Part shown: positions 2,094-8,693 of the stretch, one piece after another
How positions within the stretch are numbered: position 1 is the stretch's first letter
Layout of the letters: each line of letters begins with the position of its first letter
NCBI GenBank assembly: GCA_014584465.1
Contig: JACTMU010000075.1
Location: 1-64,000 of the forward strand
From: Pseudomonadota bacterium
GTDB lineage: Bacteria; Bdellovibrionota; Bdellovibrionia; Bdellovibrionales; JACTMU01
DNA length: 64,000 nt
Reading direction: 5' to 3'
Translations under genes and position numbers: made by a program
Notes under the pieces: model-generated
The model's database searches: none
What the model was told of the DNA's origin: nothing
The model's input: the letters and a program-made list of their open reading frames with translations, nothing else

Positions 2094-2121
2094 TTGACAA
2101 TGCATATATTATGCGTATATC
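2094..2121 (+). promoter_or_regulatory. Sigma-70-type promoter of the imuA-like gene
   Basis: A consensus -35 TTGACA (2094-2099) is followed after 16 bp by TATATC (2116-2121). Transcription would begin near 2128, only a few bases before ATG 2133. That implies a very short leader or leaderless message unless a different hexamer is used. Confidence 0.5.
2102..2120. promoter_or_regulatory. Candidate LexA operator at the imuA promoter
   Basis: The 19-mer GCATATATTATGCGTATAT lies between -35 and -10. It matches 14 of 19 positions of the equivalent site in the lexA promoter (2633-2651). The core is ATAT-N7-GTAT, one base from a palindromic RTAC-N7-GTAY. Assignment to LexA is inference from this sharing. 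Confidence 0.45.
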
Positions 2122-2132
2122 GTGAAGGTTCT

Positions 2133-2612
2133 ATGGGAAATTCCGTGGCGCTACCCAAAGGGGCAATTACACAGATCAGTGGTCATGGTAAGACCGAGTT
2201 TGTAGTCCAATGGATTGCGGAACACTCTGATCTTCGAGTGGCGTGGATTGAAGATGGAATTTCGATCTTTCCCTATGGTTTCTTACAAAGGAGAGTGTCA
2301 CTCCATCGAGTTCTTTTTATTGAGGCAGAGTCCCATTTCAATTGGGTTGTACTTGAAATTCTTCGCTCTCAAACATTTCCTGTTGTGGTGGTCTATGTTG
2401 AAAATTTGGAGCTGAAGGTGTTAAGACGCATCCAGCTGGCGTCAGAGAAGTGTGACATTACAACCCTTTGGCTCTCCAAAGAACCAAGAGGTTTTTTTCC
2501 GATCTCTCTGCAACTGCAAATCGTTAAGTCGGATTCCGGTTTAAAGACGAATGTGTTGCGCCAAAGAGGTTCATTGAACTTCGACGCGCTCTCTTTGCTT
2601 AAGAAAAAATAG
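2133..2612 (+). CDS. imuA: ImuA-like SOS mutagenesis accessory protein (RecA-like fold)
   Basis: This 159-residue protein opens the imuA-lexA-imuB-dnaE2 cassette. ImuA/SulA-like proteins have a RecA-type core and help the ImuB/DnaE2 translesion mutasome. Residues about 10-22 (AITQISGHGKTEF) look like a degenerate Walker A loop: GKT is kept, but the first Gly of GxxxxGKT is Gln, so ATP binding is doubtful. Alternating beta strands (VVVVYVENLELKVL, DITTLWLSKEP) fit the fold, and a basic tail ends in KKK. ATG 2133 is chosen because GAAGG precedes it; the earlier TTG 2094 is part of the -35 box. The family is called mainly from context, since sequence divergence is high. Confidence 0.6.
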   Translation: MGNSVALPKGAITQISGHGKTEFVVQWIAEHSDLRVAWIEDGISIFPYGFLQRRVSLHRVLFIEAESHFNWVVLEILRSQTFPVVVVYVENLELKVLRRIQLASEKCDITTLWLSKEPRGFFPISLQLQIVKSDSGLKTNVLRQRGSLNFDALSLLKKK

Positions 2613-2623
2613 ACCTAGGTCTA

Positions 2624-2652
2624 TTGCAAGCAGCGTACATTCACCGTATATA
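2624..2652 (+). promoter_or_regulatory. lexA promoter
   Basis: TTGCAA (2624-2629) and TATATA (2647-2652) are spaced by 17 bp; a TATAAT at 2649-2654 overlaps with 19-bp spacing. The predicted leader to ATG 2776 is about 117 nt. Confidence 0.5.
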
Positions 2653-2691
2653 ATGGATTTTCAGAGGCTCATGAGTACGAACAATGTACGG
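2633..2691. promoter_or_regulatory. Two candidate LexA operators at lexA
   Basis: Site 1 (2635-2649) is GTAC-N7-GTAT and overlaps the -10 box. Site 2 (2675-2689) is GTAC-N7-GTAC, 40 bp downstream and beyond the predicted start point. Site 1 with its flanks is the counterpart of the imuA motif. Two sites at the repressor's own promoter fit autoregulation, but binding is not shown. Confidence 0.45.
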
Positions 2692-2775: not shown

Positions 2776-3402
2776 ATGGGACGCCCACCACTGACAGACA
2801 AAGAAGAGCGAGTGTATGAATTCATCAACTCCTACATGAGCCGGTTTGGGCGCCCGCCCACCTATGCTGAGATCAGAGATCGTTTTCGCTACAAAAACAA
2901 CTCCTCCATTCAGAACTTCATTCAGCAGCTTCGGCTTAAGGGGTACATTAAGGCTCCCATTGGATCTAATAAGAAGCGTGCCATCGAACTTGTCGCTAAA
3001 GGACGAATCCGAGAGCTGGAGAGAATTCCTCTTGAGGGAACTGTGGCTGCCGGAGGTCTCACAGAGGCCGTTCATCATCGAGACTATGTCGATGTACCTC
3101 GAAATCTCTTACGCTCAGGCGGAGAGTACTTTGCCTTAAGGGTCAAAGGGGACTCTATGATCGAAGACTGCATCATGAGTGGAGATCTGGTCATCATTCG
3201 ACGCCAAAGCAACGCACAGAATGGTCAAACGGTGGTGGCTCTTGTGGACAACTCAGAGGCCACCATTAAGAGATATTATAAAAAGGAGGATCATATTGAA
3301 CTTGTTCCTGCGAACCCCAGTTATGATCTTATTCGAGTCGATCACAATACGGAGTTTAAGATATTGGGTGTACTGACCAGCGTGATCCGTAAGTTGGAGT
3401 GA
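2776..3402 (+). CDS. lexA: LexA SOS repressor, S24 self-cleaving protease
   Basis: LexA represses SOS genes and cleaves itself when RecA filaments form on damaged DNA. The 208-residue protein has the N-terminal winged helix (PPTYAEIRDRFRYKNNSSIQN), the cleavage site VAAGG with Ala92-Gly93, the nucleophile Ser127 in GDSM and the general base Lys165 in EATIKR; the Ser-Lys spacing of 38 is normal. ATG 2776 is preceded by AAAGGAG and gives the standard MGRPPLTDKE start. The open frame extends 41 codons upstream but that region is leader with operator-like repeats. The TGA stop lies inside one copy of a 16-bp direct repeat. Confidence 0.97.
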   Translation: MGRPPLTDKEERVYEFINSYMSRFGRPPTYAEIRDRFRYKNNSSIQNFIQQLRLKGYIKAPIGSNKKRAIELVAKGRIRELERIPLEGTVAAGGLTEAVHHRDYVDVPRNLLRSGGEYFALRVKGDSMIEDCIMSGDLVIIRRQSNAQNGQTVVALVDNSEATIKRYYKKEDHIELVPANPSYDLIRVDHNTEFKILGVLTSVIRKLE

Positions 3403-3405
3403 ATC
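3390..3405 (+). repeat. 16-bp direct repeat, left copy (lexA 3' end)
   Basis: TAAGTTGGAGTGAATC contains the last lexA codons and stop. The identical sequence occurs at 4210-4225, just before imuB. The pair brackets the toxin-antitoxin segment. Confidence 0.9.
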
Positions 3406-3411
3406 GCCTAG

Positions 3412-3470
3412 ACTCGGATCTGAAGTTAGAACCCAGATCTGGGTTAGAAATGGGGCTTCGAATCCGGGTT
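3412..3470. repeat. Family A repeat copy with internal palindromes
   Basis: The start (CTCGGATCTGAAGTTAGAA) resembles the family A arm at 580-599. It is followed by CAGATCTG and by a palindrome CTTCGAATCCGGGTTCGAAG with 7-bp arms. It marks the left part of the segment inserted between lexA and imuB. Confidence 0.5.
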
Positions 3471-3517
3471 CGAAGGGCTCATGTCCGCGTTTGCTGTAGA
3501 TGCAACGAAATCAAATG

Positions 3518-3554
3518 TTGACTTTGGGCAGTTTTTGTTATAACATGTTATAAC
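3518..3554 (+). promoter_or_regulatory. Toxin-antitoxin promoter with an 18-bp palindromic operator
   Basis: TTGACT (3518-3523) and TAACAT (3541-3546) are 17 bp apart. The perfect palindrome GTTATAACATGTTATAAC (3537-3554) covers the -10 region, as expected for autorepression by a MazE-type antitoxin. Antitoxin ATG 3574 lies 20 bp downstream. Confidence 0.6.
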
Positions 3555-3573
3555 TTTATAGGATGAAAAGGCC

Positions 3574-3837
3574 ATGAAAACGATTGTCAGAAAAGTTGGA
3601 AATTCACTAGGCATCCTCCTCAGCAAGGAGATCACTGGACCTTTACAAATTCATGAATCTGATGAATTTGAGGTCTCTGTGGCCCCCGATGGGCGAACAA
3701 TTTTGATCTCGCCGCTCACTTCGCCTCATGCAGAGTGGGAATCATGGTTGAATGCACATCCTCAGACCCCCTCAGAGGGGCTCCTTCTCGGTGAGGATGA
3801 GGGATTGAGCTCCGACAGTAAAGAATGGGTTTGGTGA
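3574..3837 (+). CDS. MazE-like antitoxin, AbrB/SpoVT swapped-hairpin fold
   Basis: An 87-residue protein. The N-terminal half (TIVRKVGNSLGILLSKEI) is a typical AbrB-type DNA-binding beta hairpin; such antitoxins bind their own operator and, through a disordered acidic tail, block the toxin. Here the tail is acidic and Trp-rich (EWESW, GEDEG, KEWVW), suited to wrap the toxin. The stop overlaps the toxin start (TGATG), so translation is coupled. The pair interrupts the lexA-imuB operon between 16-bp direct repeats, and an 18-bp palindrome sits at its promoter. Family call is firm; the target of regulation beyond its own promoter is unknown. Confidence 0.85.
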   Translation: MKTIVRKVGNSLGILLSKEITGPLQIHESDEFEVSVAPDGRTILISPLTSPHAEWESWLNAHPQTPSEGLLLGEDEGLSSDSKEWVW

Positions 3838-4175
3838 TGAAGCTTGGTGAAGTCTATTTGGTCAGCTTAAGGCCAACTGAAGGTCGAGAAATCATGAGGA
3901 AGGGCCGAGACGAAGCGCGACCCTGCGTTGTTGTTTCTCCAAATCTTTTAAATGAAAAGCTTGGAACCGTCATGGTGGCCCCTATGACCTCCAAGAGAAG
4001 GAAGTTTCCTTGGCGAGCACAGATCGAGTTTAAAGGAAAGCATGGAGAGATTGTAACTGAACAGATCCGCACCTACGATCAATCAAGCCACAGGTTTCTC
4101 AAAAAACTTGGATCCCTTACCAAAGCAGAGATGCAAGATTGTCTCTCTCGACTTCGTCAGATTTTTTCTTGCTGA
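3837..4175 (+). CDS. MazF/PemK-family mRNA interferase toxin
   Basis: A 112-residue toxin. PemK/MazF enzymes are ribosome-independent endoribonucleases that cut single-stranded mRNA at short sites. Visible signatures are the start KLGEVYLVSLRPTEGREI, the strand RPCVVVSPNLLN, TVMVAPMTS, and EIVTEQIRTYD before the final KKLGSLTK helix. The loop EIMRKGRDEARPC is longer than in most members, where EI.K.RP is direct, which could change RNA specificity. ATG 3837 overlaps the antitoxin stop; ATG 3825 is in frame but lies inside the antitoxin gene. Thirty-four bases after the stop comes the right copy of the direct repeat. Confidence 0.88.
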   Translation: MKLGEVYLVSLRPTEGREIMRKGRDEARPCVVVSPNLLNEKLGTVMVAPMTSKRRKFPWRAQIEFKGKHGEIVTEQIRTYDQSSHRFLKKLGSLTKAEMQDCLSRLRQIFSC

Positions 4176-4209
4176 CCTTAAGTTGACCCACGTGATTCGT
4201 TACAAACTA

Positions 4210-4225
4210 TAAGTTGGAGTGAATC
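4210..4225 (+). repeat. 16-bp direct repeat, right copy (imuB leader)
   Basis: Identical to 3390-3405. It carries TTGGAG, the likely ribosome-binding site of imuB (GTG 4232). Removing one copy plus the intervening 804 bp would leave the lexA stop about 12 nt before imuB. Confidence 0.9.
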
Positions 4226-4231
4226 TATAAG

Positions 4232-5536
4232 GTGAATGGCCGTCCTAGACTCAAAGAGAGAGTCATCTGCATTTTAGTTCCCCAAGGATTTGATCCTCTG
4301 CGACTGGCTGAGGCGTGCTACAGGTACACACCTCAGATTGCCGTCGGAGCTCGATCTGTTTTTTTGGAAGTGGCTAAGTGCAGAAGGCTCTACAGCGAAG
4401 AGACGATCCTCTTAAGATGTCAAATTTTAGCTAAGCGATTTGCCATTGAGATTCAAATCGCCGTTGCAGACGACATTCCCACAGCAAAAGCCTATGCCTG
4501 GTATCAAAGAGAGGATCTCCCCATTGAAGCCATGGCCATCTACTTAGATCCCTTTGAAGACCTTCACTCCTCTAGGTTTAAGGCGATTCACAAAACTTCA
4601 AGAATTTTTCGTCAACTGGGCATAAAGAGTCTTAAGGAGTTTTTGGATCTTCCCATAGAGTCGGTCACTGCAAGATTTGGTAGAGAGGCTCTCTTAGCTC
4701 GCCATCAGATGGCACAGGCTCAAGAGTCCCTCCGGCGACCATGGCCGCTTTTTAAACCTCAGCAGAAGATCCTTGAAGGCGAAGAGATTGAAGACCACTG
4801 TCTCATCCAAGAACTAGAGCCTCTCCTCTTTTTGCTCAATGTCGTTGTGGATCGCACTCTTTTAAGGGTTCGAGGAAAGGGGGAACTTTTGATCGCAGCA
4901 CAATTTCGAATTCAACAGGAGAAGTATGATGATGTGCGCGATTTTTTGCGCGTATGGAACTTTGATTTCGCACTTCCTCAATACACTGCTTCGGGAGTTG
5001 TGGACATTCTTCGCGAACGATTGAATCGAGATCTCCAACGCCAACCGCTCTCCTCACCTGTAAAAAAGATCGAGTTTGAGGTGATTCGCACTGTAGCTAG
5101 CTATGGAAAACAGAAGAGCCTCTTCTCACGTAAAGAAGAAGAGGAGGAGAATTTAAATTCCATCATCGCCAGAATCTCCGATCGCTTGGGCATTGAAAAG
5201 GTTTTTTTTGCTTCACCGGTGGAGAGTTATCTCCCTGAACGAAGTTGGACAAGATCTTTGTCCACACCCTCTGAAATCAGAGAGAGTCTTCCTTTACGTC
5301 CCATGCGAATACTTAAAGAACCCCAAATACTCCATCAGGTGGATTGCTATTTTTGTTGCAAGAAGAAGAGATGGAAGATCCAAAGGTGGACAGGACCAGA
5401 ACGCATCTCTGGAGAGTGGTGGCAAGGAGATGAACCACGTGATTACTACCGAGTTCTGACGGAATCAGAAGAAGAGCTGTGGATCTTTGTCAAGCCTGAC
5501 GAGAACACCTACTATTTGCATGGCATATTCGATTAG
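4232..5536 (+). CDS. imuB: ImuB, inactive Y-family polymerase-like mutasome hub
   Basis: ImuB links ImuA and DnaE2 to the sliding clamp during damage-induced mutagenesis. The 434-residue protein keeps the Y-family layout but lacks the catalytic acidic motif at its N terminus (VICILVPQGFDPLRLAEAC), as usual for ImuB. A helix-hairpin-helix (FRQLGIKSLKEFLDLP) follows. QKSLF at residues 294-298 fits a beta-clamp-binding motif. The C-terminal ImuB-specific region is clear: GPERISGEWWQGDEPRDYY and a final LHGIFD. The start is GTG 4232; its Shine-Dalgarno GGAG lies in the duplicated 16-bp repeat. Originally it was probably co-transcribed with lexA. Confidence 0.9.
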   Translation: MNGRPRLKERVICILVPQGFDPLRLAEACYRYTPQIAVGARSVFLEVAKCRRLYSEETILLRCQILAKRFAIEIQIAVADDIPTAKAYAWYQREDLPIEAMAIYLDPFEDLHSSRFKAIHKTSRIFRQLGIKSLKEFLDLPIESVTARFGREALLARHQMAQAQESLRRPWPLFKPQQKILEGEEIEDHCLIQELEPLLFLLNVVVDRTLLRVRGKGELLIAAQFRIQQEKYDDVRDFLRVWNFDFALPQYTASGVVDILRERLNRDLQRQPLSSPVKKIEFEVIRTVASYGKQKSLFSRKEEEEENLNSIIARISDRLGIEKVFFASPVESYLPERSWTRSLSTPSEIRESLPLRPMRILKEPQILHQVDCYFCCKKKRWKIQRWTGPERISGEWWQGDEPRDYYRVLTESEEELWIFVKPDENTYYLHGIFD

Positions 5537-5651: not shown

Positions 5652-8600
5652 ATGACCATCGTAAAAGAAAGAGAGGAGACTTCGGGAGTCTCCTATGCGG
5701 AACTTAAGTGCAAGACCAATTTCTCTTTTTTAGAGGGAGCTTCACATCCTGATGAACTTGTGGAGCGAGCCTACGAGCTTGGCATCACAGCCTTAGCGAT
5801 CACCGATCGCAATGGAGTCTACGGCATCCCTAAGGCTTACTGGAGGGCCAAAGATCTTTCGCCACTTCATTTGATCGTGGGCGCGGAGGTGACCATGGAG
5901 GATGCACCACCTCTGACCCTTCTGGCACAAGATCGTGGGGGCTATGGGCTTTTGTGTCGCATTCTCACCACAAGCCACTGTGGTTCGCCTATGGGTCGCA
6001 AAGCCAAGGGCGAGGCCTCATTGAAGATGAAAGAGCTTATGGATTTTGCAAATGATTCTCGATTTTCATCTCTTTTGGCTTTTCCAGAAGTTGACTCTGA
6101 CTTGAATCTCTTTAAGGAACTTTTTGAAGATCGCCTCTACCTATTTCTCAGTCGCACTCAAGATGGTCATGATCGACGTCGTACGCAAAACGTTTTAGAA
6201 GCTTCCAAACAATGGGAGCTTCCCATTGTGGCCACCAACAATGTTCTTTATCATGCAAAGGAGCGTCGACCTCTTCAAGACTCATTGACCTGCGTTCGCA
6301 CTGGGAAGAGTTTATTGAATGCAGGATTTCACCTACTTCCTAACAGTGAGAGGCATCTTAAATCCCCTTCAGAGATGAAGCGCCTTTTTGAAGACTTACC
6401 AGGAGCTCTAACGCTCACCTTAAAGATTGCGGAAAGATGCACCTTTTCTTTAAAGGAGTTGAGGTATCGCTACCCTTCAGAGTGGATCCCTCAGGGCCAT
6501 ACAGCTCAAACCTACCTTGAGGAGATGACATGGCAAGGGGCACGTGAAAGATACCACTCAGAGTTACCACAAGAGGTGATTGGGCAGCTCAAACATGAGC
6601 TCTCTCTCATCCAACAACTTGAGTTTGCAGACTACTTTTTGACCATTTTTGATATTGTGGAGTTTGCTAAGGGTAGAGAGATTCTCTGTCAAGGACGAGG
6701 AAGTGCCGCAAACAGTGCGGTCTGTTATTGTTTGGGAATCACTGCCATTGATCCTGTGAGGATGAATCTTCTCTTTGAAAGATTTATCTCGGTGGAGCGA
6801 GGCGAACCTCCTGACATTGATGTCGATTTTGAACATGAGCGGCGTGAAGAGGTGATCCAGTACATCTACAAGAAATATGGAAGAGATCGAGCCGCTATGG
6901 TGAGCGCCGTGGTGACCTACCAAAAGAGATCCGCTTTTCGCGAGTTGTCCAAAGCCTTTGGACTTGATGTGGGAACACAATCCGCCAAAGAGGTGATCAA
7001 AAACTTTGATGAACTCTCAGCCTCAAGTCCGATCCGCGACCTTCGCACGCAGATGGAATCTCTGTCTGAAGAGATGCAGGGATTTCCTCGCCACCTCTCC
7101 ATTCATAGTGGCGGGTTTACGCTTTCTGCAGATCCGATGGTTGAGATTGTCCCCATCGAACCTGCAAGAATGGAGGGACGCACCATCATTCAGTGGGATA
7201 AGTATGACCTTGATTACCTGGGACTTTTGAAGGTGGACGTGTTGGCTCTTGGCATGCTTTCAGCGCTGAGGAAAACTCTGAATCACGTCGGGATGAAACT
7301 TCATGAGATCCCCTCGGAGGATCGAAAGACCTATGAGATGATCCAACGAGGTGACACGGTAGGGACCTTTCAAATTGAGTCTCGGGCTCAAATGAATATG
7401 AGTGGAAGACTTAGACCGCGTTCATTCTACGATCTTGTGATCCAAGTGGCCATTGTACGCCCAGGCCCAATTGTAGGAAAGATGGTTCACCCCTATCTGA
7501 AACGACGCCATGGACTTGAGAAGGTCTCCTATCCACATCCTAAACTGAGAGAGATTTTGGGGAAAACTCTGGGGATTCCCCTTTTTCAGGAGCAGGTCAT
7601 GAAAATTGCCATTGAACTTGGAGGATTTACTCCAGGTGAGGCCGATCAACTTCGCCGCGCCATCGGAGCATGGCGAGCCAAAGGATCCATCGAAAAGGTC
7701 GGGAGCCGACTCCTTGAGGGACTACGAAAGAGCGGCATCCCTGATCAATATTCTCACGTGATCTTTGAGCAACTTAAAGGTTTTGCCCACTATGGCTTCC
7801 CCGAATCACACTCAGCTTCCTTTGCGCTCTTGGCCTATGCTTCAGCCTATCTCAGATGTCACCATCCCGCCGAATTTCTCTGTGCCTTGGTGAACTCTCA
7901 ACCAATGGGATTTTACTCCAACCACACCCTTGTGGACGATGCCAAAAGGCATGGAGTCAAAGTGCTCCCCGTGGACATTCAGGAGTCTGAGTACCATTGC
8001 ACTCTGGTTGGGGGTCATGTGCGACTTGGTCTGCGCTTGATTCGCGGATTGAGTCATCAAGATGCTCAAAGAGTCATCGCCATGCGCCCCTATCGAGATC
8101 TCGCTGATTTTCTCTCAAAGACCCACATTGCGGAGGATGTGCTTTTTCAGATGGCCATGGGAGACCTCTTTGCCTCTATGGGTTTGGATCAGCGTCAAAC
8201 CCTGTGGCAACTTCTTGCAAACAAGATCAAAAGATCCTCTCGCCAGCTCAGTCTCTTTGAGGGCCACTCTCTGGATCCACAGACTCCAAATCTTAAAAAA
8301 CTCACAGGAGCCGAAGCGATCTCTCAAGACTACAGCACCTATGGACTCTCTGTCCGAGGCCATCCTATGGCAGAGCTGCGAAAGATTTGCAAACTCCCTA
8401 GAGCTTCCACTTTGAAAGCCAAACAGCGCCCCCCGAAGAGCTACATTCATACTTCAGGTCTTGTTTTGGTTCGCCAACGACCTCCAACTGCCAATGGCGT
8501 CTGTTTTTTGACTATTGAAGATGAATATGGCTTTTTAGATCTTGTCTTCTTCAGCAAGGAGTTCACTCAGTACAAAGAACTCCTTTACCATCACAGCTTT

Positions 8601-8693
8601 CTCTGCGTCTCTGGGCTCATTGAACGAGATGGCCACTCCGTAAGCCTCATCGTCAAAAAGTGTCAGCCACTGCCAGATCTCTTACGCGATTAG
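5652..8693 (+). CDS. dnaE2: DnaE2 (ImuC) error-prone DNA polymerase III alpha subunit
   Basis: A 1013-residue C-family polymerase, within the 1000-1080 range of DnaE2 and shorter than replicative DnaE. The N-terminal PHP domain starts YAELKCKTNFSFLEGASHP. The polymerase core shows the catalytic DIDVDFEHERREEVIQY and QGRGSAANSAVCY, followed by GGFTPGEADQLRRAIGAW and the helix-hairpin-helix and OB regions. QLSLF at residues 865-869 fits a clamp-binding site. It makes untemplated or miscoding insertions opposite lesions together with ImuB and ImuA. It follows imuB after 115 bp that contain a tandem Shine-Dalgarno array, and has no clear promoter of its own. Confidence 0.95.
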   Translation: MTIVKEREETSGVSYAELKCKTNFSFLEGASHPDELVERAYELGITALAITDRNGVYGIPKAYWRAKDLSPLHLIVGAEVTMEDAPPLTLLAQDRGGYGLLCRILTTSHCGSPMGRKAKGEASLKMKELMDFANDSRFSSLLAFPEVDSDLNLFKELFEDRLYLFLSRTQDGHDRRRTQNVLEASKQWELPIVATNNVLYHAKERRPLQDSLTCVRTGKSLLNAGFHLLPNSERHLKSPSEMKRLFEDLPGALTLTLKIAERCTFSLKELRYRYPSEWIPQGHTAQTYLEEMTWQGARERYHSELPQEVIGQLKHELSLIQQLEFADYFLTIFDIVEFAKGREILCQGRGSAANSAVCYCLGITAIDPVRMNLLFERFISVERGEPPDIDVDFEHERREEVIQYIYKKYGRDRAAMVSAVVTYQKRSAFRELSKAFGLDVGTQSAKEVIKNFDELSASSPIRDLRTQMESLSEEMQGFPRHLSIHSGGFTLSADPMVEIVPIEPARMEGRTIIQWDKYDLDYLGLLKVDVLALGMLSALRKTLNHVGMKLHEIPSEDRKTYEMIQRGDTVGTFQIESRAQMNMSGRLRPRSFYDLVIQVAIVRPGPIVGKMVHPYLKRRHGLEKVSYPHPKLREILGKTLGIPLFQEQVMKIAIELGGFTPGEADQLRRAIGAWRAKGSIEKVGSRLLEGLRKSGIPDQYSHVIFEQLKGFAHYGFPESHSASFALLAYASAYLRCHHPAEFLCALVNSQPMGFYSNHTLVDDAKRHGVKVLPVDIQESEYHCTLVGGHVRLGLRLIRGLSHQDAQRVIAMRPYRDLADFLSKTHIAEDVLFQMAMGDLFASMGLDQRQTLWQLLANKIKRSSRQLSLFEGHSLDPQTPNLKKLTGAEAISQDYSTYGLSVRGHPMAELRKICKLPRASTLKAKQRPPKSYIHTSGLVLVRQRPPTANGVCFLTIEDEYGFLDLVFFSKEFTQYKELLYHHSFLCVSGLIERDGHSVSLIVKKCQPLPDLLRD

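What the first reader, a model, noticed from the sequence alone, without database searches (positions are those of the whole stretch)
2102..2691. Shared promoter motif, candidate new LexA operator (RTAY-N7-GTAY)
The 19-mer in the imuA promoter (2102-2120) and the one in the lexA promoter (2633-2651) agree at 14 of 19 positions and hold the same place between -35 and -10. A third site GTAC-N7-GTAC lies at 2675-2689. LexA operators are clade-specific, and this form differs from the E. coli CTGT-N8-ACAG, the alphaproteobacterial GTTC-N7-GTTC and the reported Bdellovibrio TTAC-N3-GTAA.
Basis: partly seen in the sequence, partly recalled or inferred. Interest (0 to 1): 0.6.

Follow-up and report, generated by a model that had tools for sequence, protein, structure and literature searches.

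The report
LexA operators guarding a mutagenesis cassette
Three short DNA sites in front of imuA and lexA in an uncultured relative of Bdellovibrio are very probably where the LexA repressor binds to switch off its own error-prone DNA polymerase cassette; they belong to an 11-base direct-repeat type of LexA site that turns out to recur throughout this order of bacteria in several spellings.

Summary
The sites are real. The pairwise 14-of-19 match alone is unconvincing (12 of 60 shuffles do as well), but independent evidence is strong. A profile built from operators of related lexA promoters, with none from this window, scores the two lexA sites first and second of about 128,000 window positions. 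With LexA1-type operators added, the three reported sites rank 1, 2 and 3. The corrected motif is RTAYG-N3-AAY-RTAYG, an 11-bp-period direct repeat, on the minus strand at imuA (2103-2118) and lexA site 1 (2634-2649), on the plus strand at lexA site 2 (2675-2690). It has four matches in the 3.75 Mb genome, three of them these. recA has none, so the regulon looks cassette-only, as reported for Bdellovibrio bacteriovorus. Across the order, 23 of 28 lexA promoters (one per genus) carry such a repeat at lag 11 (0.6 expected), spelled GTACG, GTATG, TTACR or ATACG; one more has GTTCG. In Bdellovibrio itself the published palindrome TTAC-N3-GTAA appears to be the junction of two facing direct repeats. 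No binding was measured. Verdict: new variant of a known kind (direct-repeat LexA operators, known from Alphaproteobacteria), controlling a self-contained imuA-lexA-imuB-dnaE2 module.

The parts
2094..2099 (+). -35-like hexamer TTGACA of the imuA promoter
   Evidence: consensus match only
2103..2118 (-). Operator at imuA: ATACG-CATAAT-ATATG (minus strand), direct repeat of period 11, overlapping the -10 region
   Evidence: rank 1 with a LexA1-only profile, rank 3 with the combined leave-window-out profile; rank 14 with the LexA2-only profile
2133..2612 (+). imuA (RecA-like accessory of the mutasome); ATG 2133 is the likely start, mechanical ORF from 2094
   Evidence: NF033429 ImuA E=1e-14, below the family's cut-off; 48-49% identity to imuA of L002 and L011
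2624..2629 (+). -35-like hexamer TTGCAA of the lexA promoter; -10-like TATAAT at 2649-2654
   Evidence: read from the sequence; not in the list because the spacer is 19 nt
2634..2649 (-). Operator 1 at lexA: ATACG-GTGAAT-GTACG (minus strand), between -35 and -10
   Evidence: rank 2 in window, leave-window-out
2675..2690 (+). Operator 2 at lexA: GTACG-AACAAT-GTACG, downstream of the -10
   Evidence: only hit of the relatives' profile in the whole genome; rank 1
2776..3402 (+). lexA: winged-helix domain plus S24 peptidase; Ala-Gly cleavage site and Ser/Lys dyad aligned with solved LexA
   Evidence: PF01726, PF00717; TIGR00498 above cut-off; alignment to 3k2z and 7b5g; only PF01726 match in the genome
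3574..4175 (+). mazE-like/mazF (PemK) toxin-antitoxin pair between lexA and imuB, flanked by a 16-bp direct repeat (3390-3405, 4210-4225)
   Evidence: PF02452 E=1e-22, PF04014 below cut-off; repeat
4232..5536 (+). imuB (Y-family-like mutasome protein; identified by similarity to the corresponding gene of relatives and by position)
   Evidence: 45% identity to L002 imuB between imuA and dnaE2; no Pfam or NCBIfam hit
5652..8693 (+). dnaE2 (imuC), error-prone DNA polymerase III alpha paralogue
   Evidence: NF004225 error-prone DNA polymerase, 1214 bits, cut-off 939

Best explanation
The three sites are operators of the LexA encoded at 2776-3402. A LexA dimer recognises two half-sites RTAYG in the same orientation, 11 bp (one helical turn) apart, with an AAY step before the second. 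One operator covers the imuA promoter between -35 and -10, one covers the lexA promoter in the same place, and a third lies just downstream of the lexA -10. LexA bound there keeps lexA and the mutasome genes imuA, imuB and dnaE2 low. On DNA damage RecA filaments trigger LexA self-cleavage at its Ala-Gly bond and the cassette is induced; recA itself is outside the regulon. Shown here: the sites, their recurrence at lexA promoters of the order, their near-uniqueness in the genome, LexA domain and catalytic-residue conservation, and absence of a site at recA. Inferred: binding, repression, inducibility, and whether transcription runs through mazEF into imuB-dnaE2.
For: Lag test: 27 of 32 lexA promoters of relatives (23 of 28 one-per-genus) have a >=6-nt exact repeat at lag 11, about 2.5 expected, maximum 8 in shuffles, no other base lag. 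With a TAY core: 23 of 28 vs 0.56 expected. Leave-window-out profile R1: its only hit with E<10 in 3.75 Mb is 2674-2691 (own E 1.35); window ranks. RTAYGNNNAAYRTAYG: 4 genome matches, 3 here, the fourth at an ORF junction on another contig, control 1. Strict motif in G006, G019 and G010 only in front of lexA, 0 reversed-pattern controls. An order-wide search found an independent case, G082: twin GTACGGGAAATGTACG before lexA-imuA-imuB-dnaE2, with a divergent SRAP gene. LexA features; single PF01726 gene.
Against: No binding or expression data. The imuA site is the weakest: rank 14 with LexA2-type sites alone and 843 with type A alone. R1's E-value in the own genome is 1.35, so weight rests on position, not score. 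14/19 is not significant by itself. The combined profile's register and strand choice for relatives was set by hand. No recA site. No close relative (same genus or family) of the window's genome is held.
Confidence: 0.85

Rival explanations
1. The imuA/lexA similarity is only shared promoter architecture (-35/-10 elements, AT-rich spacer), and only the downstream lexA site 2675-2690, or none, is an operator.
For: 14/19 is reached by 12 of 60 shuffles and includes the -10; the imuA site scores poorly with LexA2-only profiles.
Against: Operator 1 ranks second in the window with a profile holding no window sequence, on the strand opposite to the promoter, so promoter likeness does not explain it; the imuA site ranks 1 with LexA1 sites and 3 with all sites; three of the four genome matches of RTAYGNNNAAYRTAYG are here.
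Confidence: 0.1
2. The sites belong to another regulator whose gene is not in the window and which happens to control lexA and imuA.
For: No binding data; recA lacks the site.
Against: In G006, G019 and G010 the strict motif occurs only in front of lexA itself, in different gene neighbourhoods (L087, L085); half-site spelling follows the LexA tree; in Bdellovibrio the same layout marks lexA, imuA, imuB, dinB and a DNA-repair radical-SAM gene.
Confidence: 0.04
3. LexA does bind these sites, but as an inverted-repeat dimer using the self-complementary GTAC/RTAY cores; the direct-repeat look is incidental because RTAY reads the same on both strands.
For: GTAC and RTAY are palindromic, so a symmetric dimer could use them; LexA dimers are described as binding palindromic motifs in E. 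coli (PMC8565304 introduction).
Against: The fifth base (G), the AAY step and the non-palindromic spellings GTTCG, TTACR and GTATG keep the direct orientation at lag 11 across genera, while an inverted arrangement would turn the flanks.
Confidence: 0.2

Closest known systems
Bdellovibrio bacteriovorus LexA and its reported operator TTAC-N3-GTAA (Campoy et al. 2005, cited in PMC8565304, PMC3323433, PMC3901139)
   Same: Same bacterial order; canonical SOS genes not under LexA (title of the paper), as recA here has no site; LexA of the same fold; Bdellovibrio LexA1 sites found here also have an 11-bp direct repeat.
   Different: Half-site RTAYG instead of TTACR; the window's LexA falls outside the Bdellovibrio LexA1 branch; no TTAC-N3-GTAA core at the window's sites.
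Alphaproteobacterial LexA operator GTTC-N7-GTTC
   Same: Direct repeat with the same period of 11 bp; a relative with an imu cassette has GTTCG-N6-GTTCG (L020).
   Different: Core GTAY/ATAY instead of GTTC; found at a cassette and not at recA.
Cyanobacterial LexA box AGTACWNWTGTACT (PMC3091678)
   Same: GTAC half-sites.
   Different: Shorter spacing (GTAC-N4-GTAC, period 8), read there as palindrome or tandem repeat.
lexA2-imuA-imuB-dnaE2 cassette of Pseudomonas putida (described in PMC3901139)
   Same: LexA encoded with and controlling the mutasome genes.
   Different: Gene order here is imuA-lexA-mazEF-imuB-dnaE2 with a separate imuA promoter, and this is the only PF01726 lexA in the genome.

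Membership tests
LexA (TIGR00498) | N-terminal winged-helix plus S24 peptidase with Ala-Gly cleavage site and Ser/Lys dyad | tested here: met
   163.8 bits, cut-off 110.95; alignment shows VAAGG, GDSM and TIKRYY opposite the LexA residues
Direct-repeat LexA operators (alphaproteobacterial layout GTTC-N7-GTTC) | two half-sites in the same orientation, 11 bp apart, at the lexA promoter | tested here: met
Direct-repeat LexA operators (alphaproteobacterial layout GTTC-N7-GTTC) | GTTC core | tested here: not met
   window cores are ATAC, ATAT and GTAC; GTTC found only in relative L020
Direct-repeat LexA operators (alphaproteobacterial layout GTTC-N7-GTTC) | bound by LexA and relieved by DNA damage | not testable with these tools
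   needs footprint and induction assay
Bdellovibrio TTAC-N3-GTAA palindrome | TTAC-N3-GTAA core in the lexA promoter | tested here: not met
   not present at 2094-2140 or 2613-2775
Canonical SOS regulon | operator at recA | tested here: not met
   L039 holds no site even with the relaxed DTAYR-N6-DTAYR
imuA-imuB-dnaE2 mutasome cassette | imuA, imuB and dnaE2 adjacent and with a LexA operator | tested here: met
   imuB by similarity and position only, and lexA and mazEF lie between imuA and imuB; the operator is predicted, not measured

The most novel reading that the evidence does not exclude
LexA of the whole order binds 11-bp direct repeats, not palindromes. The half-site spelling drifts with the LexA lineage (TTACR, GTACG, GTATG, GTTCG, ATACG) while period and the AAY step stay largely fixed, and the published Bdellovibrio palindrome TTAC-N3-GTAA is only the junction of two direct-repeat operators facing each other at lexA and imuA.
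Probability: 0.55. Interest if true: 0.62.

Novelty: new variant of a known kind. Interest (0 to 1): 0.5.

Why it matters
LexA is the textbook case of a repressor whose binding site keeps changing between bacterial groups. This order offers a series in which spelling changes while an 11-bp direct-repeat frame is kept, with lexA copies tied to a mutagenesis cassette. That makes the route from one LexA site to another testable. It also predicts that the published Bdellovibrio operator should be re-measured, and that DNA damage in these bacteria induces an error-prone polymerase cassette without inducing recA.

Tried and rejected
Degenerate RTAY-N7-RTAYG genome-wide: no excess over the reversed pattern. 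GTAYGRNNNNNGTAYG: 4 hits, control 4; only the lexA one is upstream of a damage gene. The 14/19 consensus with 2 mismatches: only the two sites themselves plus one at an ORF start on C101. Other GTACG-type hits in the order (L059, L068-L070, L082) lie in or between genes with no LexA or imu similarity and look like chance. A profile from the nearest relative alone (two sites) is too thin: window sites rank 8, 11 and 80. Campoy 2005, Erill 2006 and Erill 2016 are not held. No held paper prints GTACN7GTAC with LexA, which says little because most LexA papers are not in the library.

Full report
What is in the window. The first 8.7 kb hold imuA (2133-2612), lexA (2776-3402), a mazEF-type toxin-antitoxin pair (3574-4175), imuB (4232-5536) and dnaE2 (5652-8693). 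The genome is 3.75 Mb in 120 contigs, 99.7% complete; its relatives at order level include named Bdellovibrionales and Bdellovibrionota MAGs. lexA is the only PF01726 gene in it. The LexA aligns over its length with solved LexA structures and keeps the Ala-Gly cleavage site and the Ser/Lys dyad.

Checking the observation. The coordinates and the 14/19 identity are right. The 14/19 match is not by itself beyond chance: 12 of 60 dinucleotide shuffles of the two upstream regions give a best 19-mer match of 14 or more. The degenerate form RTAY-N7-RTAYG is at background in the genome (116 vs 109 for the reversed control). So the claim had to be tested with evidence from outside the window.

Evidence from relatives. 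I took 300 bp upstream of 32 lexA genes of the order and asked, for each lag, how many contain an exact repeat of at least 6 nt. Lag 11 gives 27 of 32 (about 2.5 expected, maximum 8 in 200 shuffles); no other lag stands out except 22, its double. With one promoter per genus it is 23 of 28; requiring a TAY core it is 23 of 28 against 0.56 expected. The repeats themselves read GTACG-N6-GTACG (L081, L012, L018, L021, L006, L007), GTATG (L005), GTTCG (L020), and TTACR-N6-TTACR in most others. In five loci (L081, L012, L018, L006, L007) two operators lie 28 bp apart. In G006, G019 and G010 the strict motif GTACGRNRAANGTACG occurs only in front of lexA, with no hits of the reversed pattern. A search of 141 genomes turned up G082, which had not been used before: twin GTACGGGAAATGTACG in front of lexA-imuA-imuB-dnaE2, with a divergently transcribed SRAP gene, a known SOS-associated peptidase family.

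Back to the window without using it. A profile of 16 operators from relatives (none from the window) was run on the whole genome: its only hit with E<10 is 2674-2691 in the lexA promoter. The E-value there is 1.35, so the weight comes from where the top hit falls: the lexA upstream region is about 200 bp of 3.75 Mb. In the window the second hit is 2649-2634 on the MINUS strand. A weight matrix gives the same: ranks 1 and 2 of about 128,000 positions, and with seven LexA1-type operators added the three reported sites are ranks 1, 2 and 3. The imuA site is the weakest (rank 14 without LexA1 sites, rank 1 with LexA1 sites alone). In the right orientation the three sites are ATACG-CATAAT-ATATG, ATACG-GTGAAT-GTACG and GTACG-AACAAT-GTACG, that is RTAYG-N3-AAT-RTAYG. 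The slightly wider RTAYGNNNAAYRTAYG has four matches in the genome: these three and one at an ORF junction on another contig. This last pattern was written after seeing the sites; the profile test was not.

Regulon. recA (L039) has no site even in relaxed form. The window's LexA therefore appears to control only its own cassette. This agrees with the reported finding that canonical SOS genes are not under LexA in B. bacteriovorus (title of Campoy et al. 2005, as cited in PMC3323433 and PMC3901139; the paper itself is not held).

Bdellovibrio itself. They include lexA (L109, L110, L116), ImuA-like genes (L092-L095, L099, L107, L115), an ImuB-like gene (L118), dinB (L113), the DNA-repair radical SAM gene rSAM_link_UDG (L114) and mobile mystery protein A (L101, and by sequence likeness L098 and L111). 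At most of the lexA, imuA and imuB sites the layout is TTAC-N7-TTAC-N3-GTAA-N7/8-GTAA, two direct repeats facing each other, so the published TTAC-N3-GTAA (PMC8565304, PMC3323433) is their junction. At dinB, rSAM and mobile mystery protein A only the direct repeat is present. I read this as the direct repeat being the LexA unit; it is inference and the published palindrome was not re-tested.

Evolution. On a tree of 33 LexA proteins the window's LexA pairs with that of L002/G041 (99/96) and more weakly with L011; the TTAC-type LexA1 branch and the GTACG/GTTCG cassette branch are separate, and operator spelling is clustered on the tree. The general model that lexA duplication goes with motif divergence, and that the diverged copy may later stand alone, is published (PMC8565304). 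The window's genome, with only a cassette-type lexA, fits the late stage of that model. This is a fit, not a proof.

Mechanism and confidence. Most likely LexA dimers sit on the 11-bp repeats between -35 and -10 of imuA and lexA and just downstream of the lexA -10, block transcription, and are removed by RecA-stimulated self-cleavage. Binding, repression and induction are inferred. I put 0.85 on 'these are LexA operators', about 0.8 on the direct-repeat reading given that, and 0.55 on the order-wide reinterpretation.

Noticed in passing
window 3390-4225: The mazEF-type toxin-antitoxin pair sits between lexA and imuB and is flanked by a perfect 16-bp direct repeat TAAGTTGGAGTGAATC (the 3' end of lexA and just before imuB), a footprint of insertion into the cassette. 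In relatives L002, L011, L020, L021 and L081 the cassette genes follow one another without such an insertion.
   Followed up: partly
window 2611-2622; L024:2172-2183: A perfect palindrome AGACCTAGGTCT lies just upstream of the lexA -35 and also in the lexA upstream region of L024; GGTCYAG is about seven times denser in lexA upstream regions than in other loci. Function unknown.
   Followed up: partly
L080 (G082:C22) 2501-2516: An orphan GTACGGGAAATGTACG identical to the twin lexA operators of the same genome, between genes of unknown function; a possible further LexA target.
   Followed up: partly
L101, L111, L098 (genus g14): LexA1-type direct repeats in front of mobile mystery protein A genes (HTH protein of a mobile element) in three genomes, suggesting damage-linked control of a mobile element.
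   Followed up: partly
L011 (G023:C22): The lexA-imuA-imuB promoter has a mirrored operator CTATAC-N6-CTATAC ... GTATAG-N6-GTATAG with period 12 instead of 11.
   Followed up: no
L005, L007 (and partly L006): A variant cassette: lexA, an unidentified ORF of about 250 aa, a Y-family-like ORF, and a DnaE paralogue about 28% identical to DnaE2, with GTAYG direct-repeat operators. Two of the records are labelled Deltaproteobacteria and Epsilonproteobacteria, but their LexA groups with Bdellovibrionota.
   Followed up: no
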